64,000 bases of DNA from Astrocystis sublimbata (taxonomy: Eukaryota > Ascomycota > Sordariomycetes > Xylariales > Xylariaceae), in NCBI GenBank assembly GCA_022453515.1, contig JAJNNY010000045.1, forward strand, positions 247,299 through 311,298. Direction: 5' to 3'. A model generated the notes under the pieces. The model ran no database searches. It had not been told where the DNA came from and saw only the letters and a list, made by a program, of their open reading frames with translations. The position numbers were made by a program, and so were the translations under genes. Positions within the stretch are counted from its first letter, which is position 1. Every line of letters begins with the position of its first letter. Of the stretch, positions 22,612 through 64,000 are shown one piece after another.

Positions 22612-23331
22612 ACGCTTTTTCCCACACGCCCTATAAACATTCGCTCCTTTCACCGTATACACACCCTTCCATGATGCATGATGCCGTCGAATTTGCCGAA
22701 TAATCTCCCTCCCATATCCGTGCCTGCATCACCGTTGTGCAAACAGTCTTTTAGGGCGCCTCTAGACTAATCCTTAGCTGCCACATCACTATCTTTTTTC
22801 CCTTTTGCTTGTATCGCGCCCGTTTTCCATCCGATATCACTTACTAGGTACTACCGGGGAAATAGTAGGTACCTGTCTACCATCTGACGCAAGAGACATT
22901 CGACGAAGTGGACCAGTCGCGGGAAGGGATAATACAGGTCTAACTAGCACAACATTTGACGCCTTATTTAAACGCCCTGGTTCCCGGCCTCGGTTTGGTC
23001 GAGATACCTGTTTCTATCATTAGAAAGCCTTCAAAAAGCAAAAGAATTCCAGGTGCTCGCACGTTTTACACAAAAAAGACAAAACCATTCACAGGGTCGC
23101 TCATTCAATAACTTCTTTCGTCTTCTCTTACACTTTGCCCTCCCAAGTGTCCCACTAGTCAGTCCCGTGTTCGTTCGGTCCCGTTGGCAGCAATTGATTG
23201 TCAAGCTATCCAAAAGCTAAGCTGAGCTTAACGCAACCACCATATAATCTATCTATCGATCTATCGATCGATTATCGGATCTGCTCGGAGCCCACTATTA
23301 GGTCACCGCAACGGGCTTAACTCTGAACATT

Positions 23332-23755
23332 ATGCCATCCGCTTCCCGCCGCTCTCAACAGTCTGCCTCGTGGCAAGACAAGCTCGAAGGTTTGTTTCCC
23401 CATATATCTTTAAACTCGTCCGACTATCACCACATCGCTAACCATTATGGTTAGAGGTATGCCGCGACTATCAGATTTCGCCGCCTGATTACCAGCTAGT
23501 GTCAGATCGACGAGGCAAGTTTGTCCTCATCTCAGCCCAACTGCTATCGCCAGTAGTTTGCTCGAGACCCCGTTGCTTTGCTTGTATAAGTTGTTAACAC
23601 GAACTCAACTAGGTGGTCGGACGGCTTGGTCCAGCGTCGTCCACGTCTACGGCCAGCGCTTCCAGGCGCGCTACTGGTACGACGGCAACAACCTCAACAA
23701 CGCCAGAGAAGACGCCGCCGAGGCCGCGTTCCTCTGGCTCAACAGCAGCCAGTAG
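23332..23755 (+). CDS. Small double-stranded-RNA-binding-like protein (86 aa), GC-AG intron
   Basis: Three exons: 23332-23389, 23455-23514 and 23613-23755; phases match (1/1) and total 261 nt. Intron 1 is GTTTGT...TTAG. Intron 2 starts with GCAAGT after AG (the classic GC-AG donor context) and ends ACTAG. The protein begins MPSASRRSQQSASWQDKLEE, then VCRDYQISPPDYQ and a core W(S)SVVHVYGQRFQARYWYDGN, ending with AREDAAEAAFLWLNSS. This alpha-beta-beta-beta-alpha pattern, with the closing 'A.E.AA..AL' helix, resembles a dsRBD fold. No GT donor in intron 2 keeps the frame. The role is unknown; similar small proteins are annotated in fungi only as dsRBD-like or hypothetical. Confidence 0.75.
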
Positions 23756-26700
23756 AGCAGCCAAGCCAAGCTCGTGGGGTGGGGGGGTTGGCTGGTGAAA
23801 ATCATATTGATAATGAATGATGTTCACAAGGAACAAGGAACCCCTTCCCAGCGCAATGACGAAGCCATGCATGCACGACATTTTCCATCCCATATTCCCA
23901 GCGCAGCGCATTGGGCGCGAGGCGGACGAGTTACGAGGTTCGAATGCGTTGTTTAAGATCGACCGCTATTATGGGATCTCGTCCCCCGGGCCCCCCCATC
24001 CCCCCCTCTCCCCTTCTTAATCGGGAGTTCTTATGTTGATCAGTCTTAAGACTTCAGGCTTAAGGCTGTAAGGGTTCTTTCCGACTTGCCTTGTCTTGAC
24101 TCTCTCCCTCCGCCTCCGCCTCCTCCTCCTCACAGGGCTTACACCGGTGTATGGGTTGTTCGTTCATGCGCTGGAACAGGGCTTGTTTCATGATGACGCT
24201 GTCTATGTCCTTTTCTCTTGTTGTTGTTTTTTTTGCCCTACTTTTTTATCCATTTCCATTTTTACTTTTCCACTCTGTTGATTGTTATTTGTTGTTCATT
24301 GGAAATGTCCTGGTTCTACCTTACAACTACCTACCAATCGGAGTTTCGGAAAGGGATTTCTAGCGGCCCCACGGCCCAATAACAACAACGCAAGGCAAGG
24401 GGGGAAAGCAAAGCAGGGAGCAAAGCAGGGAAAACGAACGATACCCACGACTTTTTTCTCTTGCCAACTATTACCTAACGTTCTATCTATCCCTCACTTT
24501 CATCATACGAAATCGGCGCACGACATATCTCTTGGGGGAAAATTGACTGGTGCTCATTTCTTACACTTTCCTGCTGTTTCTCTTTCCCTTACCTGATGAC
24601 ATCGCACGTTGAGAAGGGCGGGAAAAATGAGGCTTACTGGTGCTGGTGCCTGGTGGGGGTACTTTCTAGGAAATGGGTTGTTGTTTTGACATGTGATTTT
24701 CCTTACTTTACCTACTTTACCAACTTGTTTCGAGGACTTATGATCACCAAGTATGATTCGATGAGGAATGGTCTGGCTAGGTTACTCTGTCTGGGTGCGT
24801 GCTTGCTTCAGGTTGTCTACAGATTAGGTCAGAGGCGCAGGACTTTTGAAACAAAAGAGGCTTTTCTTCACATGGGGGGCATCTGGGAAGGAGTTCGGAG
24901 ACAGAGCTTTCAGCATTTCTCTCTTTCCCTTTTCTTCCTTTTTTCCCTTCCTTGATTCCCTCACCCCCCCTTGTTACCTTCCTGGATGGGACGCCGGTCC
25001 CCCCACGCATTGGACAGCACGTCTCGTACGGCTGAGTCTGGGAGCGGCGACGCCGAAACCGTGGTGCGCGAGTAAGGGTCGGCAGAGTTACGAAACCAGA
25101 TGACCGTTATCAATCATCCGGCATGGTGTTCACCGGCTGCATAGGGGTTCTGAGGGTATAGAATTCAAAAAGGGGTGATGTGATGGGCGAGATGGGGACA
25201 GGACCAAGGCGCAAAAGAAAATATAACTCATGGATAAATTCTGCGACGACGGGATGGATCATGTCAAATTGCTAGGGTCAGGAAAAATAAAACCTCTCTC
25301 AATTGAAAATGGTTCATGTTGCCAAATGGCCGGGTGACTTAGTCATTGCTTTTTTCCGCATGTGAGAAAAACTGGACATGTAAGCATCTAACCTTGTCCT
25401 TGAACTACTTACTCTCTTAGTAGGGACATCCCAATCACTCTTACGAACACGTAGTTCGCTTTTGAGAAGTTGTGCCGACGGCAATAAAGACCGCGACCTT
25501 GACACGCTGGCTAGATCTTGCATCATCCAACTAAACTCTTGAAACCATAAGGGAAGGAATGTGACCGCTGGGCATTACCAAAACCTTTCTGGGTCTTCAT
25601 GCTGTCTTGAAGCTGAACTCATCCCACTCTCTCATAAACCACGCCCGCTGGAGTGAGTAGGGTAGTATTTTCAATTGTTAGCTAGGGTTGGAAAGGGGCT
25701 GCATGACTCTGGTGCAGGACTCAAGGTATGCCGCTCAATCCCATCGACGTGGGATGTCGATTGGGGCCAAGACCTGCGGACTCGTTTGGCACCGTCGCAG
25801 CGCTACTGCCGCCCACTTCGTTCCAAGTCGAGCTTAAGCTTACAGGTGTATTGCGTCCCGGCCCACACTCGCCCAGCTTTTGTCGCTATCTACGACGCAG
25901 GAAGCACAGGAATAGGAAATAGCCAGAATCATGTGTCCAAAAGAGGACGAGGAGCTCCAAAATTCTGACCGTCTGATCCGAATCCAGACAGATTGTATGT
26001 ACCATAGTGGATTAGTAGTATGTATGTACAGTCTATACTAGGTACTCGTAAGTGCATCGCATACAAAACCCACAGTTCACCATAGTGGGGGTGAAAAAGG
26101 ATATATGTAAGCATTATGCGGTAGATCCATCCTTCTGCTGGGCCTCAGGGGGTTGATGGGTGACGAGTCATCTCAGCTACGATAGGACGAATCAACCCAT
26201 AGAACTATGCCATATAGAACTCCATTTGGACATAGTGCGATGAGGCGAGCTGGAGAGACACAGAGAGCTAGCTAGCTGCTAAGCTACTCGGAACGCTAGG
26301 TGCCGTGGCTTAAGCTACCGTAGCTTGGGACGGACGGGATTGAAATGGGGCCTTGACATCGCCGCCCGACGGCATGGTGATGGGCCAGCCATGGCGTGGA
26401 GGGCTTGATGATGGGTTGGGAAAATAAGGAATTCCTTCTCAATGCGAGACATAGGGATTTATTTGTGGCGCCGTGACATTCGTTGTGACATCAGGCAAGG
26501 ACTGAATTCCACAGTTCGCAGGATGGGTGACACACGCACCATTGAATTGGCGCAAAGCAGCAGCTTGCGTTCTGCATTCTGCATTGCGCACAGCATGGCG
26601 CGTTGAGGCGCGTGGTGAATAAACCTAGCATGCTCAGTACCGCGTGGGCGCCAACAGAACACCAGTGACCACCTCCCTACGCGACAACAACATCGACGTG

Positions 26701-27540
26701 GAGAGCGGCTCAAGTACAAGCAAGACAAATAGACCCGACAATAGATTAGCGAGACAGACTAGACTCGGAATCTAGAACAGAGGCCCGAGGGTGTGGATTA
26801 TCACATACTACCGAATTTTACTTGCCGATCACAGCCATTAGACACACTAGTCGGCGTAGGACTAGATAGACGAAAGCCACCGGAGGTCCCCTTATTTCGC
26901 TAGAGAATTCCAGGCAGGTAGTGTAGCATGGCATGGGCTGCGAACCGGGGAATAAGACAGCTGGTTCCTTACATGTCGGGCGGAAGGTGAGGGGGAACGG
27001 GATCCAGAATGTAACGTCGGCGTCTGCCAGTCTGTTTAAGTCATGTAGGTGTGCCATAAGGAGCAATACGCATCCACGGTAGTGCAGGGGTGGTGGCCTG
27101 CTTGAATCACCTGCGGGTGGTCGACATACATAGTAGTTCCTATATTGCCAGATGTACGGACGGACGCCCACAACTTGGCTGACATATCACATGATATGAC
27201 CCCGTTGACGAGGCTTGACAAGGATGACGATGAAGAGGGAAATACGGACAGGCCGACGACACGGAACAAGCTCCGCGCGAGTCAGAGCTGGCAGGCCTGA
27301 GAAGTCAATTCCGAGGAGGTCCCACGGAGAAGGTGGCAAGCCCAAGGTGGCCGCATAGGCATCGGTGTTGGCATTTGGGCGCAGCTGATCGGTGTGTCTC
27401 GAGCTTGGCTGGCGGGTGTTTGTTCCGGTATCAGCTTTCGAAAAGGCACGGAATAGGCATTAGCAGACAATAGTAAACGCCGACTAAGGAACGGGACGCC
27501 GGGGATCTTCTGCCCCGTGTTAGTGTACTGTATAGCTAAT
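23756..27540. other. Gene-poor 3.8-kb region
   Basis: No convincing gene. It contains homopurine/homopyrimidine tracts (23983-24016, C-rich; 24102-24135, CTC/CCTCCG repeats; 24220-24260, T-rich) and an AGCT-rich palindromic patch near 26268-26325. It could hold long UTRs or non-coding RNA of the neighbouring genes, but nothing in the sequence proves that. Mirrored at 59074-62858. Confidence 0.4.
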
Positions 27541-27869
27541 TAGGGAATGCCGATCGTCGAAGTCGCCGTTCTGAGCGGGCATGGCGGGATAGTGGCAGAT
27601 GTGGGATGGTGTTTGTGGTATGACTTTGGTTCTGCGGTGGACAGAATTGGCAAAAAGCAAATGGCCTCAGCATTGGACTAGTCTCAGAGGCCTGCCTTAG
27701 CGGTACATCAAACTGCCACCCTACCTCTCTGTGCCTGTTCTGCGAGGGCCGAGAGGGCCTCTCGGACCTCTTCATGCATACCGTAGGGGTGGTAGGCGGG
27801 GAGCGTGGGAGAAGTGTGGGAGGGGAATCTGAGGGGGGACAGGGGACGTGCATTGATTGGGCCCGACAT
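27541..27869 (-). CDS. Possible small protein, two exons
   Basis: An ATG at 27869 opens a frame (MSGPINARPLSPLRF, then HEEVREALSALAEQAQ, an amphipathic helix-like stretch) that stops at 27708 if unspliced. A GTAGGG donor after the AQR codons and an ACCGCAG acceptor near 27634 would instead extend it in frame to a TAA at 27541-27543. Protein-like composition in the first exon; no family recognised. The same structure is mirrored in the right arm at 58745-59073. Confidence 0.3.
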
Positions 27870-28225
27870 GCTAGGTAGGTACCCAATACCCGAGTCTGTG
27901 TCTTATCAATTGCGGCTCCTCTCCTTTGCTGAGCGGAACGGAGATAGGCGACTGCTTCTTTCGGAGTAGCGCCTCAGCCACAGACCACCAGCCTTATGAG
28001 AGTTCCAGACCGGCCAAGCCACAGCAATCCCTGCACTCTGCACCCTGCAGCCCATGAACATCACCAACTTTTGCTGAAGCCGGGGTAAATAGTGCTGTCC
28101 GCTCGCAATACGATCTCAACAGCGACGACGGTGACGACGACAGCGACAAACACACCTACCAACGAGTTGATGTGCTGACTGCGCAATTGAGGGTTTGGAA
28201 CTGGTGGGCGGAAGCGCTCTCGAGA

Positions 28226-29216
28226 ATGGCGTCGAAAATAAATCCCTGGCGGTCGTTGCGCAGTCTTGCCGTCCGAACACGGCCGTCCGGACCTCATCAT
28301 CCCCATGTCCTAGCGACCACCACCACCAGAGCTTCCGTGCCCTATGGGAGGAGGGGGCTCACCGATACCACATCGATGCGGTCACCACCGGAAGATGCCG
28401 AACTCCCCCCATCAGATCCGCCACAAGAATACCAACTGCAACATCAACCCCCGCCCTTCGCCGACAATTTCTTGAACAGGGAGGCTATCGAGGCTCTCGA
28501 ACAGGCTGCTGCCGGCGAAGACGCTGCCGAAATCCTCAGTGGTCTGAAATTCGGCATGCCCCCGCCGCCTGGCAAGAAAGAGAAGCTGCAGGACCGCCAC
28601 CATCCCGTCGTACACCAGGTCACGAGAATGCTCATGCGCGACGGGAAGCTGAGCAAGGCAGAGAAGGTGCGCATGTCTCGTTCTGTCTGCTTCTACTCAT
28701 ATTGGCTTTTTCCTCTCAGTCTAGGCTAGGCTAACACATCATCTTTTCCGGGAATAGCACCTCTCCCTCATCCTCAACCACCTCCGCACAAGTCCGCCGC
28801 CGAAAGTCTCGCCCCTCCGCCCCCTCCTCCCCGGCGCCCCACCAGCGGAGCAGCTCCCTCTCAACCCGCTCCTCTACCTCACCCTCGCCATCGAATCTGT
28901 AGCGCCCATCGTGCGCATACGCTCTCTGAAGGGGATGGCGGGTGGTGGTGCGGCGCTAGAACTTCCGGAACCCATCAACGCGCGCACCCGCCGGCGCCAG
29001 GCCATCCTCTGGATCCTCGACATCGTCAACAAGAAACAGTCGGTAGGCTCGGGCAAGAAGCAGTTCGCCGCCCGCTTCGGGCAGGAGATCGTCGCCGTCG
29101 TGGAGGGCCGATCCGCTGCCTGGGACCGCAGACAGCAGGTACACAAGCAGAGCACGAGCGCGCGTGCGAACCTGGCGAACCCTGCCATTCGGGGGGCGAA
29201 GAAGAAGAGTTTCTAG
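28226..29216 (+). CDS. RSM7: Mitochondrial small-subunit ribosomal protein uS7m
   Basis: Two exons, 28226-28666 and 28758-29216; 91-bp intron (GTGCGC...TAG), phase 0; 299 aa. The N-terminal ~120 residues are Arg/Ser/Pro-rich with a mitochondrial targeting character (MASKINPWRSLRSLAVRTRP). The uS7 core starts at HHPVVHQVTRMLMRDGKLSK and continues after the splice with AEKHLSLILNHLR, the helical AIESVAPIVRIRSLKGMAGG segment, RRRQAILWILDIVNKKQ, and a basic C terminus. uS7 nucleates assembly of the small-subunit head by binding the 3' domain of the rRNA. I chose the ATG at 28226 over an in-frame upstream TTG at 28172 because it gives a targeting-like N terminus. Confidence 0.92.
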
Positions 29217-30308
29217 GCTAAGCCTTGCCGGGATATCTAACATGTGGAAATGCATTTCGTGCACATCAGGCAGTGAGGTCATCAAGGTTGAGAAAAGCCT
29301 GCTTGAAATGATATGGGCGCGGTATCTGGGATCGGAAAAGCCACGGTGTGGCCATGGCCGCCTGCACATACAGAGGGGGGGAGCCTCCATCGCGTAGTAT
29401 ATACAACAACCTCTACATACTCTGTGTTGAAATTGTATGATAGGACAAGATAGGCCATTCGTCAGCGTATTGCCTTAGCATGACTTGTAAAAACTTGTAC
29501 ATTTGCTGCGTATCGTCCGGCCTCGTTATGAAATCCAACTTCAAGTGCCCAACCTTTCGCATTTCTTGGTACCATTTGCTTTTGTAGATGTTGCTCGATA
29601 TCTACTTGATGTCACAACTATTATATCACATGCAATGAGGACACCTAGAAGCACACCGGGGGGCAGGGGGGGCATGATAGCATTGTAGACGCTGTGATCC
29701 AGACTCTGCGTTTCGCTGCTGCATTGCATGAGTCTATCAGTATTTAAATCCCATTATACGGAATTTCTGAATTTATAGACACAATGTGGCTGTAAAGCCA
29801 TGTTTACGAGTTATGAACACGATTTCAGAAAGTTGCCAAGCTGTCAAGTTTGAAAAAACAACATCTAGTGAGTTAGTATAGTACCGTACCAAATCAAGCC
29901 GTGTCTAGCTAGTAAAGTGTTGAGCATTATTTTGCTTTTTTAACTATGCATCAACTGCACAAATTATTTTCAAATAACCAATACGGGCTTGATAAACGTT
30001 TAACAAGTATTGATTAACTATCGATTGATGATAATTGATTGTCATTTCCAGGTTAAACGTCTGGAAGGAGCAAAGTAATGGTCAATAGTTTACTGTGTAG
30101 GGCCTGGTTTGTTACGGTAGCTAGTCATTCGTCTATTCTAGTTAGACATTTAACAATCAATCTATTTTGCATCGCTCCCCGAACGCCAAACATGATGCAG
30201 AGGTTGTAGCAAAATCAAGAGATATTCTCGTTATAGTTCTGCGAGGGAACAGCACTTGAGTAAGCCGCTTTGTATTTCAATCGGCCGCAGATAGTTCCCT
30301 CATAATCC
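29217..30308. other. Intergenic, convergent 3' flanks
   Basis: Lies between the 3' ends of uS7m and the Yrb30-like gene. Notably AT-rich from about 29740 to 30160 (runs of TTGATTAACTATCGATTGATGATAATTGATT type). Contains the homopolymer (G6 at 29658-29663) that is G5 in the right arm. No gene supported. Mirrored at 56307-57397. Confidence 0.45.
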
Positions 30309-32302
30309 TCACGTTGATGGATCCGCATACGGATCGAACCCAACCCTCCTCTCCGCCTCAGCGCTCGCATCCAAGCGGTCCCTTCCTTGCAGCCCGCTCG
30401 AAGAAGCCGAGTCGTCAAGGTAAAATCGGAGTACATTATCCGGTATGGCGAGGTGTGTCGTCTGCTGGAACTCCTGCAGACTGGTGAGGCGGAGCAACAT
30501 CTCTAGAAGCGACAAGGACGTCTTGATAGCGCCAAAAGGCGACCTCTCGATGAGTTTCGTGGGAGTCATGTCAGTGGGCCTCGGCCTCAGACTTCGAGAT
30601 GGAGTGTCGTTGTTGGCGGGTTGGAGGCTAGGGGTTGTGGGTCGGTGAATGTGCGCTTCGACTGATGAAGAGCGGGATGAGGAGGCCATGTTCATCCGGC
30701 CCAGCTGCGTGATGAGGTTCTGGTCCACGGAGGGGCGGGTGGTATGTCGAGGACGACAGCCATTAGTTGCCCCTTTCGAATTCTCGACGTCGGGTGTAGG
30801 CTCCTTTCCGTCACCTATGGAGTCCGAGTCCGATTGCGAGCTTTCGTCATCTTCATCGAGGTCGAGGACCTCTAGCGCTATCCACTCCGGGTCCAGATCT
30901 TGTGGGATACGCCAATCCTTTCGATTCGGGTGTCCTTGGGAAGGCCGCGACGGAGCGATTGTGGAACAAACTGGCTCTTGCAGGAGCCCCATTTCCTGTG
31001 TCAGTTGGTAGTCAATGTCGTCCTGTGTGTCTCCTTCTGACAATGTCGTATCAGACAATATACTGTTTTCCGAGTATTCAATAGTCAAGACGGGATCAGC
31101 AGGCTCGTCAATTACTGGTATAGTATTGACTGGCATAGCATCGACATCCCTCTTGAGGAGGAGCACCGGGCTGCTGGAGGCATTTTCATCATTACTGATG
31201 TTGAGAATCTTCCCCACATCGGCGTAGAACATCTTACAGATTTGATGAATGGGGATCAGCTCTCGTATACCAGCTAGAGGTATGCCGTCGTAGGAGGTGG
31301 GCCTTGAGTCCTCCTCGTCCAAATCATGGTGCCGGCCGTCGTCCAAGTCCTCTACCAATTGGAGCCGGTAGGCATAACGCACTCGATGGTCGCTTCTAAC
31401 AACTCCGTTGGGTAGGTCATCTAGAGGGATCCGAAGAAGTCGTACTCGCGCTTTGTGTATGACCTCTTGCCACATTGGTTTTCGTTGTCCTTCCTCAATG
31501 CCGTACGGTTCCTGCAAGCCATGGGCTGAAGCATGGCCACGAAACAGCATGTAGAGAGACAAGTTGAAGTCTGGTCCGATCTGCATCGGCCGACTTGGGT
31601 CGAGTATGAACTGAGTATCGCCAACATTCACCAACATGCTAGCCTGAAGTAAGCGGGAGGGCGAGAAGGACGACGTTGGTGTTTGAATGCCACCAATGGC
31701 AGACACCCATAAATTGATGAGAGGGATAGCGTCGTCAATCTTGTCGATCAACAGTTTGATGTCGCCTCTGATTTCCATGAGCTCGACTCGCTGAGCAGCC
31801 GCTGCAGCCTTGGGGTCCCGAACCCCATTTGTTGGCAGGGTTGATGTGGGTGTGGCATTTTCCAGCCGCTCGCCCAAGGCGTCGATGTCCTCACGCAACT
31901 CTCTAGCAGTTCGCACCACATTCTCGAGGGCCGAGTCTCCCCTGGTGTAGCGGAGCTCGATATGTTCTAAGATGGGAGATACCAACTTGCAGTCTAGGTC
32001 AATGCCAAGTTCTGCCATCAAGAGCTAGGTATGCTCGTTGGGATGATGCTGACTCACCTCTATCTTACGGCCCAGCCGACGTTGTAACTGGCTGAGCTCC
32101 TGTCGCAAAGGATCATCCTCAACGGTCTGTCGGCAATGTGAGTCATCTCTGTTGTATTTGAAGTAAATCATGACATCCATGAACTACGTACCTTGAGCAG
32201 CTTCACCCCTTGGTTGATGACATAGGTTGAGGTCAGGGCGATGCAGGATCGGACGGCGTAATTGGTGGCATGGTAGGACAACCGTGCGAGAAATGCATCC
32301 AT
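30309..32302 (-). CDS. YRB30: Yrb30-like Ran-GTP-binding protein
   Basis: Exon 1 32302-32192 (MDAFLARLSYHATNYAVRS, and VINQGVKLLK); intron 32191-32127 (GTACGT...CAG); exon 2 32126-32058 (TVEDDPLRQELSQLQRRLGR); then exon 3 to 30309. The second intron starts GTGAGT. It could end at a TAG after only 33 nt, or, as I prefer, at AAG after 72 nt, giving RRLGRKIE followed by LVSPILEHIEL; both keep frame (618 or 631 aa). The N-terminal helical region resembles the fungal RanGTP-binding protein family of yeast Yrb30, which inhibits RanGAP-stimulated GTP hydrolysis. The last ~200 residues are acidic and Ser-rich, with a conserved-looking tail (LLEMLLRLTSLQEFQQTTHL). The family call is from memory of the N-terminal sequence. 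Confidence 0.8.
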
Positions 32303-33237
32303 AGTAGCTGTGGCTCAGTCGCTCCAGCTCCAGACGAGAAGCTTTGCAGATTTGGGATGATGTACTGGATGCATCGATATCGAGGTTGAAGTAAATACTT
32401 ATTAGGGAAGTCCGTGCCCAAGGGCCAGTGCTGTGTCGCCTGCAGACCCAAACCTTTTCTTTATAGGAAGTCAACTCCAGAGAATTAAAAAGGGATTAAC
32501 AGTGTGCGAGCATGCCTCCACGGTCGTTACATTTTGTTGAAGTGAGGGAAGGTCAAGTGTAAGAGATGCAGCACAGCAGCTGCTTCTGGCGGTTCGTAGG
32601 TACGTAGGTACCTATCGCACCTACTTTCAGGTACCAGCACATCACAGTACGCATACCTGATATTGGGGCTTAAATGCACTGCCCGTTGGCAGGTCGAGGT
32701 AGGTAGGTACACGGGAAGGCAAGTCGGCTACATCGTCATTGGCGGGGTCAAGCGACTCAGATCAGCTACCCCGCCACTCGCCCCACCAAAAACCTGACCG
32801 CGACACGAAATCGACCAACTGCGAGCGGAAACTTTAGGTGAAAGCCTCAAGGAAGTTTCCACCTGTCTTCAGGCAACTCAGCCCTGACTGTTCGAAGTAC
32901 CTACGTAACTGAGCCCCCAGCGATTTTGCGACTTCTACATAGTGCCGTCGGAGGAATCGAAATTTGAGGGATCCATGTAGGTACATACTTAGAGGTAGCT
33001 GCCAATTTGATTTCGCCCTCGCCCTGGTTGCAAACCACTCTACCCGACTTCATCTCACCAAATTAATCACCCTATCTTCCTACCTAGGTATATTATCTGC
33101 CATCTACCTCCGTCCAGCAAGAAGCCCTTCTGTATCCGCCCTCCACTTACTCAACATCGTACCTTACAGCGAGCACTTTTCTTCTCGACGCCAATCTAAT
33201 AGACGCATAGACACGCAAGGCCACCACGTCGCCAATC
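32303..33237. other. Divergent promoter region of Yrb30-like gene and SUP35
   Basis: A bidirectional upstream region of about 0.9 kb. It carries repeated GTAGGTAC/TACCTAGGTA-type motifs (32599-32613, 32696-32711, 32976-32984, 33081-33091) in both orientations, and a CT-rich leader before the SUP35 ATG. Two single-base differences between the palindrome arms fall here (32741-32742 and 32900-32901). No gene is supported. Confidence 0.5.
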
Positions 33238-36663: not shown

Positions 36664-36742
36664 AAGTCAGACGTACTATGACGAATTCCTGCTACCGTGG
36701 CTGTCTTCTCAAAGGCCCCTGACAACCATCACGTCGATGACG
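36664..36742 (+). repeat. Dispersed repeat copy A
   Basis: About 79 bp similar to 39357-39434 in the same orientation: shared blocks are GTCAGA, CTATGACGAA/TTATGATGAA, CGTGGCT, CAAAGGCCCC and CATCACGT.GATGA. The copies flank the feruloyl esterase gene. C/T and G/A differences dominate, as expected from RIP or simple decay. Mirrored in the right arm at 49878-49956. Confidence 0.6.
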
Positions 36743-48478: not shown

Positions 48479-50476
48479 GATGGTGGTGGTGGTGGAGGGC
48501 GCAACCTAGGATGAGGGTTGAGATGCAGGTGAGGATGAGAGATAGCCATGAGGTGTGTATAGACAGTATATATATATGAAACAGGCAAAAGATATCCGCT
48601 GTAGCAATTGGATTCTCGCAAGACTTTCGTACCTTTTGAGCAACTATATGTGATACAATAGGAATTAGTACGACCGAAGTAGAAATATTACCTTTTGATC
48701 TATAGCTAAAAAGGTTTTGGCTAAATAAAATTCCCCGTAGTCCAGCGGGGAAGCGTCGTATTCCACGGTTCTCATCGCGACTAGGGCACTACAGAGGTGG
48801 AAAAATTAGCTCCCAGAACGAGATGACAAGTCGGGTTTCCTTTCCTGGCTATAAAACCGGTTGGAATTGCAGGGGATGAACTAATCCACGTGGGTTGATA
48901 TATAGCGTTGTACCCCAGATCTTCGCAAGCGGTGGAGAGTTGTTAGGCTAAAAGCTCCGAGACGATAAGTTGAACTATAGTTGAACGGCTTATTGAACCA
49001 GGATGGAGACTTCTAGGTAATCATCGCTTCCCACGTTACTATCCGTATCGATCGCCGCTCAGACCAATTCAAGGCCAAAGGCTATTGGCACGATACTTCG
49101 GTTTAGAATGCAGGCTAGTGTTGTGATGAGTTTTGAACCACGACCTGTTGGGTAGCGAATCAACCCTGCATCCAGTTGGGGGATGAAAGCTCGAATGGTT
49201 GTGTTTCGACTCATTTCTTATCCCCTGACCCTGAGAACTTGTAACAGTTCGGGTCTGCAGCTTTAAACCGTTGTACTACCAAAAGATAGAATGTTGTCAA
49301 TTCGGAAAGTCGACCATCTGTGGGCGCTTATATACCTAGGTACGGAATCGTGACATAAGTTCCATGATCAATTCATTTGTGTTGAGGCCAGGCGATGAGC
49401 ATATGAGAAGACAGACTCCTGTTGATTGATGGAGATGGATGAATATGATGCATGTGGGAATGATGATGATAGGAAAACTTAACAGGCGAAGATTAAATAA
49501 TGTGAAGATATGTCGATTTAGATTGACAGTGGAGAAAAGAGAGGAGAAGTGAACGAAGCCGGGAGACGTCGCCTTCATTTATAAACAACGCAAAACTCAG
49601 AAGCACGTCTCCTTCGGATGACACTTCCTCATCTTCCCCAACACCAAAATTAACAACAACAAATGCCATTCACAAGGTAGGACAGCATTATTAGACATAA
49701 GAAAGCTTATTTCTGGCGCACGGATATCTCAAAGTTTGGGTTCAATGTGCAAGTAGGTTTTGATCAAACTATGTTTGTGCGTTAGGGTAGCTACCTATAC
49801 TATAGAACTTCCCACTTTCGACCAAGGTTATCGGGGAGAAGGTTAATGAGAAAGGAGGAGGAAGTCTGAAAGCAGGACGTCATCGACGTGATGGTTGTCA
49901 GGGGCCTTTGAGAAGACAGCCACGGTAGCAGGAATTCGTCATAGTACGTCTGACTTCACATTTGAATTTGAGACAGATTTCCAAATCTACCTACCTCGGA
50001 CCCGATGACCAGGGCAAACTCAATTCACAACGTGCCTTATATATACCTCACGTCTACCAAACCTGACGGAGTTGGTCGGGATTCGAACTTTCAGGTTAGG
50101 TAGAGAGGTAAGTGTATCTAGCAGCAGCACCAGGCAGAAACTTCTGCAAAGGGATCTCCATACTCAACTTTGCTTGAAATTTTCTAATTGATTTGACAAG
50201 ATTCCAAATCTACCTAGTCATTTCCGCCCAAAGAAAGCTAACTTATAGCCGGTTTTAGACATCGCTAGTATACGTGAAATTTGCCAAAGTGGTGATGCGC
50301 ATCGACGAGATGCGTATAGTAGAATCCTCGCCGTATGATGCGTTGACGCTGAGATATCAAATAATCTACTAGACCCAAGGCTCAAGATTTCTACCAGGTG
50401 CAATTAACCAGTATTTTTGAAATCTTCCATGTAGACGCTTTTGGAATAATGCTTCTGCAACGAATCTATGAATCCT
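48479..50476. other. Intergenic, mirror of 36142-38141
   Basis: Holds the mirrored dispersed-repeat copy A (49878-49956) and two arm-specific homopolymer differences (50408-50409, 50439-50442). No gene supported. Confidence 0.4.
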
Positions 50477-53380: not shown

Positions 53381-54313
53381 GATTGGCGACGTGGTGGCCT
53401 TGCGTGTCTATGCGTCTATTAGATTGGCGTCGAGAAGAAAAGTGCTCGCTGTAAGGTACGATGTTGAGTAAGTGGAGGGCGGATACAGAAGGGCTTCTTG
53501 CTGGACGGAGGTAGATGGCAGATAATATACCTAGGTAGGAAGATAGGGTGATTAATTTGGTGAGATGAAGTCGGGTAGAGTGGTTTGCAACCAGGGCGAG
53601 GGCGAAATCAAATTGGCAGCTACCTCTAAGTATGTACCTACATGGATCCCTCAAATTTCGATTCCTCCGACGGCACTATGTAGAAGTCGCAAAATCGCTG
53701 GGGGCTCAGTTACGTAGTACTTCGAACAGTCAGGGCTGAGTTGCCTGAAGACAGGTGGAAACTTCCTTGAGGCTTTCACCTAAAGTTTCCGCTCGCAGTT
53801 GGTCGATTTCGTGTCGCGGTCAGGTTTTTGGTGGGGCGAGTGGCGGGGTAGCTGATCTGAGTCGCTTGACCCCGCAATGACGATGTAGCCGACTTGCCTT
53901 CCCGTGTACCTACCTACCTCGACCTGCCAACGGGCAGTGCATTTAAGCCCCAATATCAGGTATGCGTACTGTGATGTGCTGGTACCTGAAAGTAGGTGCG
54001 ATAGGTACCTACGTACCTACGAACCGCCAGAAGCAGCTGCTGTGCTGCATCTCTTACACTTGACCTTCCCTCACTTCAACAAAATGTAACGACCGTGGAG
54101 GCATGCTCGCACACTGTTAATCCCTTTTTAATTCTCTGGAGTTGACTTCCTATAAAGAAAAGGTTTGGGTCTGCAGGCGACACAGCACTGGCCCTTGGGC
54201 ACGGACTTCCCTAATAAGTATTTACTTCAACCTCGATATCGATGCATCCAGTACATCATCCCAAATCTGCAAAGCTTCTCGTCTGGAGCTGGAGCGACTG
54301 AGCCACAGCTACT
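53381..54313. other. Divergent promoter region, mirror of 32303-33237
   Basis: Two bases shorter than the left-arm counterpart (single-base losses at 53717 and 53875). Same GTAGGTAC-type motifs. No gene supported. Confidence 0.45.
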
Positions 54314-56306
54314 ATGGATGCATTTCTCGCACGGTTGTCCTACCATGCCACCAATTACGCCGTCCGATCCTGCATCGCCCTGACCTCAACCTATGTCATC
54401 AACCAAGGGGTGAAGCTGCTCAAGGTACGTAGTTCATGGATGTCATGATTTACTTCAAATACAACAGAGATGACTCACATTGCGACAGACCGTTGAGGAT
54501 GATCCTTTGCGACAGGAGCTCAGCCAGTTACAACGTCGGCTGGGCCGTAAGATAGAGGTGAGTCAGCATCATCCCAACGAGCATACCTAGCTCTTGATGG
54601 CAGAACTTGGCATTGACCTAGACTGCAAGTTGGTATCTCCCATCTTAGAACATATCGAGCTCCGCTACACCAGGGGAGACTCGGCCCTCGAGAATGTGGT
54701 GCGAACTGCTAGAGAGTTGCGTGAGGACATCGACGCCTTGGGCGAGCGGCTGGAAAATGCCACACCCACATCAACCCTGCCAACAAATGGGGTTCGGGAC
54801 CCCAAGGCTGCAGCGGCTGCTCAGCGAGTCGAGCTCATGGAAATCAGAGGCGACATCAAACTGTTGATCGACAAGATTGACGACGCTATCCCTCTCATCA
54901 ATTTATGGGTGTCTGCCATTGGTGGCATTCAAACACCAACGTCGTCCTTCTCGCCCTCCCGCTTACTTCAGGCTAGCATGTTGGTGAATGTTGGCGATAC
55001 TCAGTTCATACTCGACCCAAGTCGGCCGATGCAGATCGGACCAGACTTCAACTTGTCTCTCTACATGCTGTTTCGTGGCCATGCTTCAGCCCATGGCTTG
55101 CAGGAACCGTACGGCATTGAGGAAGGACAACGAAAACCAATGTGGCAAGAGGTCATACACAAAGCGCGAGTACGACTTCTTCGGATCCCTCTAGATGACC
55201 TACCCAACGGAGTTGTTAGAAGCGACCATCGAGTGCGTTATGCCTACCGGCTCCAATTGGTAGAGGACTTGGACGACGGCCGGCACCATGATTTGGACGA
55301 GGAGGACTCAAGGCCCACCTCCTACGACGGCATACCTCTAGCTGGTATACGAGAGCTGATCCCCATTCATCAAATCTGTAAGATGTTCTACGCCGATGTG
55401 GGGAAGATTCTCAACATCAGTAATGATGAAAATGCCTCCAGCAGCCCGGTGCTCCTCCTCAAGAGGGATGTCGATGCTATGCCAGTCAATACTATACCAG
55501 TAATTGACGAGCCTGCTGATCCCGTCTTGACTATTGAATACTCGGAAAACAGTATATTGTCTGATACGACATTGTCAGAAGGAGACACACAGGACGACAT
55601 TGACTACCAACTGACACAGGAAATGGGGCTCCTGCAAGAGCCAGTTTGTTCCACAATCGCTCCGTCGCGGCCTTCCCAAGGACACCCGAATCGAAAGGAT
55701 TGGCGTATCCCACAAGATCTGGACCCGGAGTGGATAGCGCTAGAGGTCCTCGACCTCGATGAAGATGACGAAAGCTCGCAATCGGACTCGGACTCCATAG
55801 GTGACGGAAAGGAGCCTACACCCGACGTCGAGAATTCGAAAGGGGCAACTAATGGCTGTCGTCCTCGACATACCACCCGCCCCTCCGTGGACCAGAACCT
55901 CATCACGCAGCTGGGCCGGATGAACATGGCCTCCTCATCCCGCTCTTCATCAGTCGAAGCGCACATTCACCGACCCACAACCCCTAGCCTCCAACCCGCC
56001 AACAACGACACTCCATCTCGAAGTCTGAGGCCGAGGCCCACTGACATGACTCCCACGAAACTCATCGAGAGGTCGCCTTTTGGCGCTATCAAGACGTCCT
56101 TGTCGCTTCTAGAGATGTTGCTCCGCCTCACCAGTCTGCAGGAGTTCCAGCAGACGACACACCTCGCCATACCGGATAATGTACTCCGATTTTACCTTGA
56201 CGACTCGGCTTCTTCGAGCGGGCTGCAAGGAAGGGACCGCTTGGATGCGAGCGCTGAGGCGGAGAGGAGGGTTGGGTTCGATCCGTATGCGGATCCATCA
56301 ACGTGA
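54314..56306 (+). CDS. YRB30: Yrb30-like Ran-GTP-binding protein, mirrored copy
   Basis: Exon 1 54314-54424, intron 54425-54488, exon 2 54489-54557, intron 2 to 54629 (AAG; or 54590, TAG), exon 3 to the TGA at 56304-56306. The coding sequence is identical to the left copy. The only difference, one missing C at 54483, lies within intron 1 six bases before exon 2. Confidence 0.8.
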
Positions 56307-57397
56307 GGATTATGAGGGAACTATCTGCGGCCGATTGAAATACAAAGCGGCTTACTCAAGTGCTGTTCCCTCGCAGAACTATAACGAGAATATCTCTTGA
56401 TTTTGCTACAACCTCTGCATCATGTTTGGCGTTCGGGGAGCGATGCAAAATAGATTGATTGTTAAATGTCTAACTAGAATAGACGAATGACTAGCTACCG
56501 TAACAAACCAGGCCCTACACAGTAAACTATTGACCATTACTTTGCTCCTTCCAGACGTTTAACCTGGAAATGACAATCAATTATCATCAATCGATAGTTA
56601 ATCAATACTTGTTAAACGTTTATCAAGCCCGTATTGGTTATTTGAAAATAATTTGTGCAGTTGATGCATAGTTAAAAAAGCAAAATAATGCTCAACACTT
56701 TACTAGCTAGACACGGCTTGATTTGGTACGGTACTATACTAACTCACTAGATGTTGTTTTTTCAAACTTGACAGCTTGGCAACTTTCTGAAATCGTGTTC
56801 ATAACTCGTAAACATGGCTTTACAGCCACATTGTGTCTATAAATTCAGAAATTCCGTATAATGGGATTTAAATACTGATAGACTCATGCAATGCAGCAGC
56901 GAAACGCAGAGTCTGGATCACAGCGTCTACAATGCTATCATGCCCCCCCTGCCCCCGGTGTGCTTCTAGGTGTCCTCATTGCATGTGATATAATAGTTGT
57001 GACATCAAGTAGATATCGAGCAACATCTACAAAAGCAAATGGTACCAAGAAATGCGAAAGGTTGGGCACTTGAAGTTGGATTTCATAACGAGGCCGGACG
57101 ATACGCAGCAAATGTACAAGTTTTTACAAGTCATGCTAAGGCAATACGCTGACGAATGGCCTATCTTGTCCTATCATACAATTTCAACACAGAGTATGTA
57201 GAGGTTGTTGTATATACTACGCGATGGAGGCTCCCCCCCTCTGTATGTGCAGGCGGCCATGGCCACACCGTGGCTTTTCCGATCCCAGATACCGCGCCCA
57301 TATCATTTCAAGCAGGCTTTTCTCAACCTTGATGACCTCACTGCCTGATGTGCACGAAATGCATTTCCACATGTTAGATATCCCGGCAAGGCTTAGC
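56307..57397. other. Intergenic, mirror of 29217-30308
   Basis: AT-rich convergent 3' region; includes C5 at 56952-56956 where the left arm has G6. No gene supported. Confidence 0.4.
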
Positions 57398-58388
57398 CTA
57401 GAAACTCTTCTTCTTCGCCCCCCGAATGGCAGGGTTCGCCAGGTTCGCACGCGCGCTCGTGCTCTGCTTGTGTACCTGCTGTCTGCGGTCCCAGGCAGCG
57501 GATCGGCCCTCCACGACGGCGACGATCTCCTGCCCGAAGCGGGCGGCGAACTGCTTCTTGCCCGAGCCTACCGACTGTTTCTTGTTGACGATGTCGAGGA
57601 TCCAGAGGATGGCCTGGCGCCGGCGGGTGCGCGCGTTGATGGGTTCCGGAAGTTCTAGCGCCGCACCACCACCCGCCATCCCCTTCAGAGAGCGTATGCG
57701 CACGATGGGCGCTACAGATTCGATGGCGAGGGTGAGGTAGAGGAGCGGGTTGAGAGGGAGCTGCTCCGCTGGTGGGGCGCCGGGGAGGAGGGGGCGGAGG
57801 GGCGAGACTTTCGGCGGCGGACTTGTGCGGAGGTGGTTGAGGATGAGGGAGAGGTGCTATTCCCGGAAAAGATGATGTGTTAGCCTAGCCTAGACTGAGA
57901 GGAAAAAGCCAATATGAGTAGAAGCAGACAGAACGAGACATGCGCACCTTCTCTGCCTTGCTCAGCTTCCCGTCGCGCATGAGCATTCTCGTGACCTGGT
58001 GTACGACGGGATGGTGGCGGTCCTGCAGCTTCTCTTTCTTGCCAGGCGGCGGGGGCATGCCGAATTTCAGACCACTGAGGATTTCGGCAGCGTCTTCGCC
58101 GGCAGCAGCCTGTTCGAGAGCCTCGATAGCCTCCCTGTTCAAGAAATTGTCGGCGAAGGGCGGGGGTTGATGTTGCAGTTGGTATTCTTGTGGCGGATCT
58201 GATGGGGGGAGTTCGGCATCTTCCGGTGGTGACCGCATCGATGTGGTATCGGTGAGCCCCCTCCTCCCATAGGGCACGGAAGCTCTGGTGGTGGTGGTCG
58301 CTAGGACATGGGGATGATGAGGTCCGGACGGCCGTGTTCGGACGGCAAGACTGCGCAACGACCGCCAGGGATTTATTTTCGACGCCAT
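57398..58388 (-). CDS. RSM7: Mitochondrial ribosomal protein uS7m, mirrored copy
   Basis: Exons 58388-57948 and 57856-57398 with the same 91-bp intron; protein identical to the left copy (299 aa). Confidence 0.9.
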
Positions 58389-58744
58389 TCTCGAGAGCGC
58401 TTCCGCCCACCAGTTCCAAACCCTCAATTGCGCAGTCAGCACATCAACTCGTTGGTAGGTGTGTTTGTCGCTGTCGTCGTCACCGTCGTCGCTGTTGAGA
58501 TCGTATTGCGAGCGGACAGCACTATTTACCCCGGCTTCAGCAAAAGTTGGTGATGTTCATGGGCTGCAGGGTGCAGAGTGCAGGGATTGCTGTGGCTTGG
58601 CCGGTCTGGAACTCTCATAAGGCTGGTGGTCTGTGGCTGAGGCGCTACTCCGAAAGAAGCAGTCGCCTATCTCCGTTCCGCTCAGCAAAGGAGAGGAGCC
58701 GCAATTGATAAGACACAGACTCGGGTATTGGGTACCTACCTAGC

Positions 58745-59073
58745 ATGTCGGGCCCAATCAATGCACGTCCCCTGTCCCCCCTCAGATTCCCCTCCCACAC
58801 TTCTCCCACGCTCCCCGCCTACCACCCCTACGGTATGCATGAAGAGGTCCGAGAGGCCCTCTCGGCCCTCGCAGAACAGGCACAGAGAGGTAGGGTGGCA
58901 GTTTGATGTACCGCTAAGGCAGGCCTCTGAGACTAGTCCAATGCTGAGGCCATTTGCTTTTTGCCAATTCTGTCCACCGCAGAACCAAAGTCATACCACA
59001 AACACCATCCCACATCTGCCACTATCCCGCCATGCCCGCTCAGAACGGCGACTTCGACGATCGGCATTCCCTA
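58745..59073 (+). CDS. Possible small protein, mirrored copy
   Basis: Mirror of 27541-27869; same two-exon hypothesis, same low support. Confidence 0.3.
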
Positions 59074-62000
59074 ATTAGCTATACAGTACACTAACACGGG
59101 GCAGAAGATCCCCGGCGTCCCGTTCCTTAGTCGGCGTTTACTATTGTCTGCTAATGCCTATTCCGTGCCTTTTCGAAAGCTGATACCGGAACAAACACCC
59201 GCCAGCCAAGCTCGAGACACACCGATCAGCTGCGCCCAAATGCCAACACCGATGCCTATGCGGCCACCTTGGGCTTGCCACCTTCTCCGTGGGACCTCCT
59301 CGGAATTGACTTCTCAGGCCTGCCAGCTCTGACTCGCGCGGAGCTTGTTCCGTGTCGTCGGCCTGTCCGTATTTCCCTCTTCATCGTCATCCTTGTCAAG
59401 CCTCGTCAACGGGGTCATATCATGTGATATGTCAGCCAAGTTGTGGGCGTCCGTCCGTACATCTGGCAATATAGGAACTACTATGTATGTCGACCACCCG
59501 CAGGTGATTCAAGCAGGCCACCACCCCTGCACTACCGTGGATGCGTATTGCTCCTTATGGCACACCTACATGACTTAAACAGACTGGCAGACGCCGACGT
59601 TACATTCTGGATCCCGTTCCCCCTCACCTTCCGCCCGACATGTAAGGAACCAGCTGTCTTATTCCCCGGTTCGCAGCCCATGCCATGCTACACTACCTGC
59701 CTGGAATTCTCTAGCGAAATAAGGGGACCTCCGGTGGCTTTCGTCTATCTAGTCCTACGCCGACTAGTGTGTCTAATGGCTGTGATCGGCAAGTAAAATT
59801 CGGTAGTATGTGATAATCCACACCCTCGGGCCTCTGTTCTAGATTCCGAGTCTAGTCTGTCTCGCTAATCTATTGTCGGGTCTATTTGTCTTGCTTGTAC
59901 TTGAGCCGCTCTCCACGTCGATGTTGTTGTCGCGTAGGGAGGTGGTCACTGGTGTTCTGTTGGCGCCCACGCGGTACTGAGCATGCTAGGTTTATTCACC
60001 ACGCGCCTCAACGCGCCATGCTGTGCGCAATGCAGAATGCAGAACGCAAGCTGCTGCTTTGCGCCAATTCAATGGTGCGTGTGTCACCCATCCTGCGAAC
60101 TGTGGAATTCAGTCCTTGCCTGATGTCACAACGAATGTCACGGCGCCACAAATAAATCCCTATGTCTCGCATTGAGAAGGAATTCCTTATTTTCCCAACC
60201 CATCATCAAGCCCTCCACGCCATGGCTGGCCCATCACCATGCCGTCGGGCGGCGATGTCAAGGCCCCATTTCAATCCCGTCCGTCCCAAGCTACGGTAGC
60301 TTAAGCCACGGCACCTAGCGTTCCGAGTAGCTTAGCAGCTAGCTAGCTCTCTGTGTCTCTCCAGCTCGCCTCATCGCACTATGTCCAAATGGAGTTCTAT
60401 ATGGCATAGTTCTATGGGTTGATTCGTCCTATCGTAGCTGAGATGACTCGTCACCCATCAACCCCCTGAGGCCCAGCAGAAGGATGGATCTACCGCATAA
60501 TGCTTACATATATCCTTTTTCACCCCCACTATGGTGAACTGTGGGTTTTGTATGCGATGCACTTACGAGTACCTAGTATAGACTGTACATACATACTACT
60601 AATCCACTATGGTACATACAATCTGTCTGGATTCGGATCAGACGGTCAGAATTTTGGAGCTCCTCGTCCTCTTTTGGACACATGATTCTGGCTATTTCCT
60701 ATTCCTGTGCTTCCTGCGTCGTAGATAGCGACAAAAGCTGGGCGAGTGTGGGCCGGGACGCAATACACCTGTAAGCTTAAGCTCGACTTGGAACGAAGTG
60801 GGCGGCAGTAGCGCTGCGACGGTGCCAAACGAGTCCGCAGGTCTTGGCCCCAATCGACATCCCACGTCGATGGGATTGAGCGGCATACCTTGAGTCCTGC
60901 ACCAGAGTCATGCAGCCCCTTTCCAACCCTAGCTAACAATTGAAAATACTACCCTACTCACTCCAGCGGGCGTGGTTTATGAGAGAGTGGGATGAGTTCA
61001 GCTTCAAGACAGCATGAAGACCCAGAAAGGTTTTGGTAATGCCCAGCGGTCACATTCCTTCCCTTATGGTTTCAAGAGTTTAGTTGGATGATGCAAGATC
61101 TAGCCAGCGTGTCAAGGTCGCGGTCTTTATTGCCGTCGGCACAACTTCTCAAAAGCGAACTACGTGTTCGTAAGAGTGATTGGGATGTCCCTACTAAGAG
61201 AGTAAGTAGTTCAAGGACAAGGTTAGATGCTTACATGTCCAGTTTTTCTCACATGCGGAAAAAAGCAATGACTAAGTCACCCGGCCATTTGGCAACATGA
61301 ACCATTTTCAATTGAGAGAGGTTTTATTTTTCCTGACCCTAGCAATTTGACATGATCCATCCCGTCGTCGCAGAATTTATCCATGAGTTATATTTTCTTT
61401 TGCGCCTTGGTCCTGTCCCCATCTCGCCCATCACATCACCCCTTTTTGAATTCTATACCCTCAGAACCCCTATGCAGCCGGTGAACACCATGCCGGATGA
61501 TTGATAACGGTCATCTGGTTTCGTAACTCTGCCGACCCTTACTCGCGCACCACGGTTTCGGCGTCGCCGCTCCCAGACTCAGCCGTACGAGACGTGCTGT
61601 CCAATGCGTGGGGGGACCGGCGTCCCATCCAGGAAGGTAACAAGGGGGGGTGAGGGAATCAAGGAAGGGAAAAAAGGAAGAAAAGGGAAAGAGAGAAATG
61701 CTGAAAGCTCTGTCTCCGAACTCCTTCCCAGATGCCCCCCATGTGAAGAAAAGCCTCTTTTGTTTCAAAAGTCCTGCGCCTCTGACCTAATCTGTAGACA
61801 ACCTGAAGCAAGCACGCACCCAGACAGAGTAACCTAGCCAGACCATTCCTCATCGAATCATACTTGGTGATCATAAGTCCTCGAAACAAGTTGGTAAAGT
61901 AGGTAAAGTAAGGAAAATCACATGTCAAAACAACAACCCATTTCCTAGAAAGTACCCCCACCAGGCACCAGCACCAGTAAGCCTCATTTTTCCCGCCCTT

Positions 62001-62858
62001 CTCAACGTGCGATGTCATCAGGTAAGGGAAAGAGAAACAGCAGGAAAGTGTAAGAAATGAGCACCAGTCAATTTTCCCCCAAGAGATATGTCGTGCGCCG
62101 ATTTCGTATGATGAAAGTGAGGGATAGATAGAACGTTAGGTAATAGTTGGCAAGAGAAAAAAGTCGTGGGTATCGTTCGTTTTCCCTGCTTTGCTCCCTG
62201 CTTTGCTTTCCCCCCTTGCCTTGCGTTGTTGTTATTGGGCCGTGGGGCCGCTAGAAATCCCTTTCCGAAACTCCGATTGGTAGGTAGTTGTAAGGTAGAA
62301 CCAGGACATTTCCAATGAACAACAAATAACAATCAACAGAGTGGAAAAGTAAAAATGGAAATGGATAAAAAAGTAGGGCAAAAAAAACAACAACAAGAGA
62401 AAAGGACATAGACAGCGTCATCATGAAACAAGCCCTGTTCCAGCGCATGAACGAACAACCCATACACCGGTGTAAGCCCTGTGAGGAGGAGGAGGCGGAG
62501 GCGGAGGGAGAGAGTCAAGACAAGGCAAGTCGGAAAGAACCCTTACAGCCTTAAGCCTGAAGTCTTAAGACTGATCAACATAAGAACTCCCGATTAAGAA
62601 GGGGAGAGGGGGGGATGGGGGGGCCCGGGGGACGAGATCCCATAATAGCGGTCGATCTTAAACAACGCATTCGAACCTCGTAACTCGTCCGCCTCGCGCC
62701 CAATGCGCTGCGCTGGGAATATGGGATGGAAAATGTCGTGCATGCATGGCTTCGTCATTGCGCTGGGAAGGGGTTCCTTGTTCCTTGTGAACATCATTCA
62801 TTATCAATATGATTTTCACCAGCCAACCCCCCCACCCCACGAGCTTGGCTTGGCTGCT
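59074..62858. other. Gene-poor region, mirror of 23756-27540
   Basis: Same homopurine/homopyrimidine tracts in opposite orientation, including G7/G7/G5 runs at about 62607-62631 that match the left arm exactly. No gene supported. Confidence 0.4.
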
Positions 62859-63282
62859 CTACTGGCTGCTGTTGAGCCAGAGGAACGCGGCCTCGGCGGC
62901 GTCTTCTCTGGCGTTGTTGAGGTTGTTGCCGTCGTACCAGTAGCGCGCCTGGAAGCGCTGGCCGTAGACGTGGACGACGCTGGACCAAGCCGTCCGACCA
63001 CCTAGTTGAGTTCGTGTTAACAACTTATACAAGCAAAGCAACGGGGTCTCGAGCAAACTACTGGCGATAGCAGTTGGGCTGAGATGAGGACAAACTTGCC
63101 TCGTCGATCTGACACTAGCTGGTAATCAGGCGGCGAAATCTGATAGTCGCGGCATACCTCTAACCATAATGGTTAGCGATGTGGTGATAGTCGGACGAGT
63201 TTAAAGATATATGGGGAAACAAACCTTCGAGCTTGTCTTGCCACGAGGCAGACTGTTGAGAGCGGCGGGAAGCGGATGGCAT
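62859..63282 (-). CDS. Small dsRBD-like protein, mirrored copy
   Basis: Exons 63282-63225, 63159-63100 and 63001-62859; identical to the left copy, including the GC-AG intron. Confidence 0.73.
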
Positions 63283-64000
63283 AATGTTCAGAGTTAAGCC
63301 CGTTGCGGTGACCTAATAGTGGGCTCCGAGCAGATCCGATAATCGATCGATAGATCGATAGATAGATTATATGGTGGTTGCGTTAAGCTCAGCTTAGCTT
63401 TTGGATAGCTTGACAATCAATTGCTGCCAACGGGACCGAACGAACACGGGACTGACTAGTGGGACACTTGGGAGGGCAAAGTGTAAGAGAAGACGAAAGA
63501 AGTTATTGAATGAGCGACCCTGTGAATGGTTTTGTCTTTTTTGTGTAAAACGTGCGAGCACCTGGAATTCTTTTGCTTTTTGAAGGCTTTCTAATGATAG
63601 AAACAGGTATCTCGACCAAACCGAGGCCGGGAACCAGGGCGTTTAAATAAGGCGTCAAATGTTGTGCTAGTTAGACCTGTATTATCCCTTCCCGCGACTG
63701 GTCCACTTCGTCGAATGTCTCTTGCGTCAGATGGTAGACAGGTACCTACTATTTCCCCGGTAGTACCTAGTAAGTGATATCGGATGGAAAACGGGCGCGA
63801 TACAAGCAAAAGGGAAAAAAGATAGTGATGTGGCAGCTAAGGATTAGTCTAGAGGCGCCCTAAAAGACTGTTTGCACAACGGTGATGCAGGCACGGATAT
63901 GGGAGGGAGATTATTCGGCAAATTCGACGGCATCATGCATCATGGAAGGGTGTGTATACGGTGAAAGGAGCGAATGTTTATAGGGCGTGTGGGAAAGCGT
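63283..64000. other. Upstream flank of the dsRBD-like gene, mirror of 22612-23331
   Basis: Holds ATCGATCGATAGATCGATAGATAGAT short repeats (about 63342-63367) upstream of the small gene. The window ends inside the inverted repeat. Confidence 0.4.

What the first reader, a model, noticed from the sequence alone, without database searches (positions are those of the whole stretch)
22612..64000. Giant near-perfect palindrome with arms of at least 20.7 kb
All genes of 22.6-43.3 kb recur reversed in 43.3-64 kb with identical predicted proteins, introns and spacers. Natural inverted repeats of this size and identity are very rare in fungal chromosomes. If real, it would be a fold-back inversion, isochromosome arm or palindromic mini-chromosome that doubles the dose of SUP35, uS7m and the Yrb30-like gene. 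If not, it is a misassembly that would create false duplicates in gene counts.
Basis: seen in the sequence. Interest (0 to 1): 0.9.

Follow-up and report, generated by a model that had tools for sequence, protein, structure and literature searches.

The report
Fold-back assembly artefact at contig end
The huge mirror-image duplication is really in the deposited sequence, but it runs exactly to the end of its contig, and many other contig ends of this fungal assembly fold back in the same way, so it is almost certainly a long-read assembly error and not a real chromosome structure.

Summary
The palindrome is in the sequence: axis between 43310 and 43311, arms 22612-43310 and 43311-64000, no substitutions, eight small indels (nine bases), all missing from the right arm. 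The chromosomal interpretation is not supported. The window is the last 64 kb of contig C130, which ends at window base 64000, so the right arm stops where the contig stops, with no unique sequence beyond it. The apparent left boundary is only the mirror of the contig end. The axis lies inside a dispersed, AT-rich, probable Ty3-like retroelement; the four copies printed continue past this point. Other ends of the same assembly do likewise: 10 of 39 probed fold back on their own contig, as does the end of C132 (18.5 kb arm, matching to the last base). All 12 axes have lower GC than the window mean. Two contigs carry one locus with turning points about 0.3 kb apart, hard to reconcile with one fixed palindrome. 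SUP35, mitochondrial uS7 and the Yrb30-like gene are most likely single-copy. The genome is Astrocystis sublimbata. Raw reads were not available.

The parts
22612..43310 (+). Left (native) arm, continuous with the rest of contig C130. Carries the mitochondrial uS7, Yrb30-like, SUP35-like and other genes.
   Evidence: Self-alignment. Pfam: Ribosomal_S7, Ran-binding, GTP_EFTU, GTP-eEF1A_C.
43311..64000 (-). Right arm: reverse complement of the left arm, lacking 9 bases in 8 places, running to the last base of the contig. Most likely the overhang of a fold-back long read.
   Evidence: the contig ends at 311298 = window 64000.
43310..43311 (.). Axis, zero spacer (TAAATAATAT|ATATTATTTA), 101 bp perfect on each side, GC 0.16 in the central 200 bp.
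42647..43310 (+). Part of a dispersed retroelement (86-88% identical copies on C101, C21, C91, C154, C135; 80% on C129). The six copies are colinear to within 3 bases of the axis. The four copies whose sequence was printed continue past it.
   Evidence: a Tf2-1-like SH3 integrase domain, just under the curated cut-off, in the copy on C101.
43311..43973 (-). Mirror copy of that retroelement piece.
30309..32302 (-). Yrb30-like RanGTP-binding protein gene, two exons. The mirror copy at 54314-56306 (+) has the same 569-aa open frame.
33211..36141 (+). SUP35-like (eRF3) gene region. Mirror copy on the right arm.
Evidence: Open frames and Pfam GTP_EFTU, GTP-eEF1A_C and GTP_EFTU_D3; last exon and stop.
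28226..29216 (+). Mitochondrial uS7 gene region. Mirror copy on the right arm.

Best explanation
A contig-terminal fold-back assembly artefact. The assembler most likely extended contig C130 with a chimeric palindromic long read, one that runs outward along one strand, turns round inside an AT-rich retroelement at window 43310, and returns along the complementary strand. The contig then ends where that read, or the few reads like it, ended. The true chromosome very probably continues from 43310 into the rest of the retroelement, and the genes of 22.6-43.3 kb are single-copy. Shown: the palindrome ends with the contig, the axis lies in a repeat that continues elsewhere, and the same pattern recurs at many contig ends. 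Inferred: that it arose in library preparation, amplification or sequencing. Whether by strand switching in amplification, snap-back priming or a hairpin-closed molecule is not resolved. The confidence is for an artefact of any origin and includes the 0.08 given below to a graph error without chimeric reads.
For: (1) The right arm runs to the last base of C130 (311,298 bp), with no unique flank and no telomere array. (2) Of 39 other contig ends probed with 80-100 bp of terminal sequence, 10 recur inverted on their own contig at 98-100% identity. All 10 predicted centres were read: each matches its own reverse complement over the 800-1200 bases fetched, at 82-100% identity. (3) C132 has the same structure: axis about 277747, arm 18.5 kb, with pieces at the centre, middle and end read and matching to the last contig base. 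(4) C31 and C123 hold the same locus (99% over 0.3 kb) but C31 turns back roughly 0.3 kb earlier than C123. (5) Arm lengths at the 12 fold-backs, from axis and contig end, range from about 1.5 to 25 kb, the range of single long reads (recalled). (6) Zero substitutions, with all eight indels missing from the distal arm, fit a less polished copy of the same sequence. (7) The central 200 bp at all 12 axes has GC 0.08-0.38, against a window mean of 0.50. (8) Fold-back reads, often with no spacer, are documented for long reads (PMC12870357, Results and Discussion read) and after whole-genome amplification (PMC6218980, Background and passages read). In the latter, an assembly from corrected reads lacked inverted duplications that were visible in the published one.
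Against: No raw reads or depth could be examined. The sequencing platform and any amplification step of this assembly were not found in the library. PMC12870357 saw virtually no fold-backs in its PacBio HiFi data and few recurrent fold-back places in its newest ONT genomic data, so the source here is open. Missing bases on the distal arm are not universal: near the C132 axis the inner arm lacks bases. Not every centre is as clean as C130's: C35 (82%), C135 (88%) and C123 (95%) have unmatched or mismatched central stretches, and C186, C179, C172, C134, C57 and C31 have 2 to 16 mismatches. C123's longer centre could also be read as about 0.56 kb of AT-rich DNA that C31 lacks. The surveyed contigs were not random. 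They were those surfacing, many because they carry the same retroelement.
Confidence: 0.95

Rival explanations
1. A real fold-back inverted duplication (breakage-fusion or hairpin-capped) at the AT-rich retroelement, truncated in the assembly only because the distal part was not reached.
For: The zero-spacer axis in AT-rich DNA is what sister-chromatid fusion could give (recalled). Zero substitutions fit a very recent event.
Against: No unique distal sequence or telomere. It would need at least 12 such events in one assembly, each reaching a contig end. One locus shows two turning points.
Confidence: 0.03
2. An assembly-graph error without chimeric reads: the assembler joined a sequence to its own reverse complement through inverted copies of the retroelement lying near each other.
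For: The retroelement is dispersed and occurs in both orientations. Contigs C131 and C130 share an unmerged colinear overlap of about 20 kb, so the graph was tangled.
Against: The turn at C130 happens inside one element copy with zero spacer. A join through two separate inverted copies would leave both and whatever lies between. At C99 the turn is exact over at least 397 bp per side, with no match there to the one element copy tested.
Confidence: 0.08
3. A palindromic extrachromosomal molecule or mini-chromosome.
For: Symmetric arms around one centre.
Against: The left arm is continuous with ordinary contig: the first 22.6 kb of the window has no mirror within the window, and a probe at 8000-9200 is single-copy. 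C130 has 247 kb more to the left of the window, of which only a few stretches were read. No telomere on the arm end.
Confidence: 0.01

Closest known systems
Fold-back (palindromic) long-read artefacts, as profiled with Breakinator (PMC12870357)
   Same: Near-perfect reverse-complement halves, often no spacer; some places recurrent (abstract, Results and Discussion read).
   Different: There they are seen as reads. Here the artefact is fixed in an assembled contig, and the reads were not available.
Whole-genome-amplification palindromes and the false inverted duplications they leave in assemblies (Pacasus, PMC6218980; also PMC13265396, abstract only)
   Same: Artificial inverted duplications in a long-read assembly (abstract, Background and passages read).
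   Different: No evidence was found on whether this DNA was amplified.
Biological fold-back inversions (breakage-fusion-bridge, ODIRA; PMC5314454, PMC10766183 and PMC10491683, search listing only)
   Same: Inverted arms around a short centre.
   Different: Those are expected to have a distal junction or capped end and raised copy number (recalled). No junction or cap is seen here; copy number could not be tested.

Membership tests
Contig-terminal fold-back assembly artefact | Inverted arm runs exactly to the contig end with no unique sequence beyond | tested here: met
   C130 ends at 311298 = window 64000.
Contig-terminal fold-back assembly artefact | Recurs at unrelated contig ends of the same assembly | tested here: met
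   10 of 39 probed ends, plus the C132 end; centres read.
Contig-terminal fold-back assembly artefact | Turning point varies between copies of the same locus | tested here: inconclusive
   Met at another locus: C31 and C123 turn about 0.3 kb apart. At C130 itself there is one instance only, so it could not be tested.
Contig-terminal fold-back assembly artefact | Single-copy read depth and fold-back reads at the axis | not testable with these tools
   No raw reads.
Real fold-back inversion / breakage-fusion-bridge palindrome | Distal junction to other sequence, or a telomere or hairpin cap | tested here: not met
   The contig ends inside the arm, so a junction beyond it cannot be excluded. C130 is not among the 100 listed of 145 telomere-repeat places.
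Real fold-back inversion / breakage-fusion-bridge palindrome | Doubled copy number of the arms | not testable with these tools
   No depth data. Two assembled copies only, both on C130.
Palindromic mini-chromosome or isochromosome | Whole molecule symmetric, or symmetric about a centromere | tested here: not met
   Of the window, only the last 41.4 kb is mirrored; the contig is 311 kb. The centromere was not assessed.

The most novel reading that the evidence does not exclude
AT-rich retroelement blocks in this xylariaceous fungus are real sites of recurrent fold-back breakage in culture, so that a fraction of nuclei or DNA molecules end in long inverted duplications with variable turning points, which the assembler captured at many contig ends. 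The varied axes at one locus (C31/C123) fit this as well as a preparation artefact if it is a mosaic process.
Probability: 0.03. Interest if true: 0.75.

Novelty: not a real feature. Interest (0 to 1): 0.1.

Why it matters
It removes a striking but false claim of doubled SUP35, uS7m and Yrb30-like genes. It also flags a public assembly in which about a quarter of the probed contig ends (10 of 39) carry inverted duplications that are very probably false. These would inflate gene counts and fake paralogues and synteny breaks, and should be trimmed. The twelve cases found here would add roughly 137 kb of false sequence if each arm is mirrored throughout.

Tried and rejected
Telomere or subtelomere origin of the axis element: rejected, because four printed copies of the element continue past the axis and the loci carry one TTAGGG or CCCTAA each. 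Natural cruciform or inverted-repeat transposon at the axis: rejected, because each of the six copies compared gives a single match to the left arm, with no mirror match. A third copy of the arm elsewhere: none found with a 1.2-kb probe. The 19-kb arm query did not even list the window's own match, so it was not used for copy counts. Finding the assembly's sequencing method: searches (1 paper listed; 0; 6 listed; 0); I opened none of the seven listed, whose titles do not describe this assembly. That it is one of a set of xylarialean genomes from JGI is recalled, not shown. A literature search for fold-backs at fungal contig ends (at least 5 of 6 terms) returned nothing. Searches gave the artefact papers used.

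Survey limits: 58 contig ends were fetched for the survey and 39 probed. The 19 left out were 18 that were AT-rich, retroelement-like, telomeric or otherwise set aside by eye, and C131's end, known to overlap C130. Contigs were not random (they surfaced). C182's end has nearby inverted copies at 96% that are also present on C100, and was counted as a repeat, not a fold-back. C57's start (arm about 1.5 kb, with further partial copies nearby) and C179's (about 2.1 kb) are the shortest positives. For the ten positives only the terminal 80-100 bases (250 at C99) and the centre were compared, not the whole arm.

Full report
What is there. The window contains one inverted match, 22618-63996 against itself, with no substitutions. 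The axis is between 43310 and 43311 with no spacer. The arms are perfect for 101 bp and then differ by seven single-base gaps and one two-base gap at the far end. All eight are bases missing from the right arm, each in a run of two to six identical bases. The chance of all eight on one side is 2 in 256 if either side were equally likely (my arithmetic). The arms are therefore 22612-43310 and 43311-64000.

Where it is. The window is bases 247299-311298 of contig C130 of a 42.6-Mb, 189-contig genome, and C130 has 311,298 bases. The right arm thus ends exactly where the contig ends, and the left boundary at 22612 is just the mirror of that end. A 1.2-kb probe from the arm has two matches in the genome, both on C130. 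A 1.2-kb probe from 8000-9200 has one. The open frame of the Yrb30-like gene matches at 100% (over 98% of the query) a protein named Astrocystis sublimbata, on a contig of 311,298 bases, which identifies the source.

The axis. The last 0.66 kb before the axis belongs to a dispersed element with copies on C101, C21, C91, C154, C135 (86-88% identical) and C129 (80%), colinear to within 3 bases of the axis. In the four copies printed (C101, C21, C91, C154) the sequence continues past the point where C130 turns back. The C101 copy encodes, on its other strand, a stretch matching the Tf2-1-like SH3 integrase domain at 28 bits against a cut-off of 30; two further frames had no Pfam match. The element is therefore probably, not certainly, a Ty3-type retroelement. 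The turn is not the end of a natural unit.

Is it a property of the assembly? A telomere-repeat search showed mirror-symmetric short telomere stretches on C132. Reading its centre, a middle pair and its end showed another fold-back, axis about 277747, arm 18.5 kb, matching to the last base of the contig. I then probed 39 further contig ends with 80-100 bases each. Ten recur inverted on their own contig: starts of C135, C134, C31, C57, C35 and C179, and ends of C99, C186, C123 and C172. The other 29 do not, counting C182's end as a repeat. All ten predicted centres were fetched and match their own reverse complement: C99 at 100%, C31, C57, C134, C172, C179 and C186 at 97-99.6%, C123 at 95%, C135 at 88% and C35 at 82%, the last two with an unmatched middle. 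The innermost matching 10-mers are 0 to 198 bases apart. Arms run from about 1.5 to 25 kb. Central GC is 0.08-0.38 at all 12, against a window mean of 0.50.

One locus, two turns. C31 and C123 carry the same sequence at about 99% identity over 0.3 kb beside the centre, and both terminal probes of C31 match C123 at 100%. But C31 turns back after following C123 to its local base 323, while C123 goes on to its own axis near local base 601. A single chromosomal palindrome would have one turning point, whereas separate fold-back molecules can differ. The alternative is that C123 holds about 0.56 kb of AT-rich middle that C31 lacks.

Mechanism. Fold-back reads are known in long-read data, often with no sequence between the halves. 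ONT genomic DNA showed about 0.55-0.6% of reads, while PacBio HiFi showed virtually none; recurrence at one place was common overall but low in the newest ONT genomic data (PMC12870357, Results and Discussion read). Amplified DNA gives many, and they can leave false inverted duplications in assemblies (PMC6218980, Background and passages; PMC13265396, abstract). The AT-rich axes here suggest strand separation or polymerase switching at weakly paired DNA; that is inference. The platform and preparation of this assembly were not found.

Conclusion. The biological readings are not supported. SUP35, uS7m and the Yrb30-like gene should be counted once until read depth shows otherwise.

Noticed in passing
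G000 C131:288270-308518 and C130:1-20299 (loci L082, L052, L083, L086, L087): The two contigs share what looks like an unmerged colinear overlap of about 20 kb (0.5 kb at 99.8% at one end, 0.3 kb at 100% at the other; the middle was not read), so C131 and C130 are probably neighbours.
   Followed up: partly
L006 (C91:11323-13970) and L007 (C154:191254-193898): C91 and C154 end with the same retroelement sequence at the same place. The C154 version differs by many small indels, as if unpolished (by eye).
   Followed up: no
C146 end; C138:248155-248235 (-) and 254489-254569 (+): The end of C146 occurs twice, inverted, on C138, which suggests a further fold-back on C138 overlapping C146.
   Followed up: no
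C35:1-88, C35:20077-20164, C29:19718-19805: The probe from the start of C35 is also present on C29, so C29 may be a redundant contig.
   Followed up: no
C15 end (58027), C143 end (235802), C156 near 178340-178477, C132:275136-275658: TTAGGG arrays lie at the ends of C15 and C143 and near the end of C156 (178539 bases). Short interstitial TTAGGG stretches about 490 bp apart occur on C15 and C132.
   Followed up: partly
C172, C123, C31 and C130 axes: Four of the 12 fold-back axes lie in or within about 0.2 kb of a match to the same retroelement copy.
   Followed up: partly
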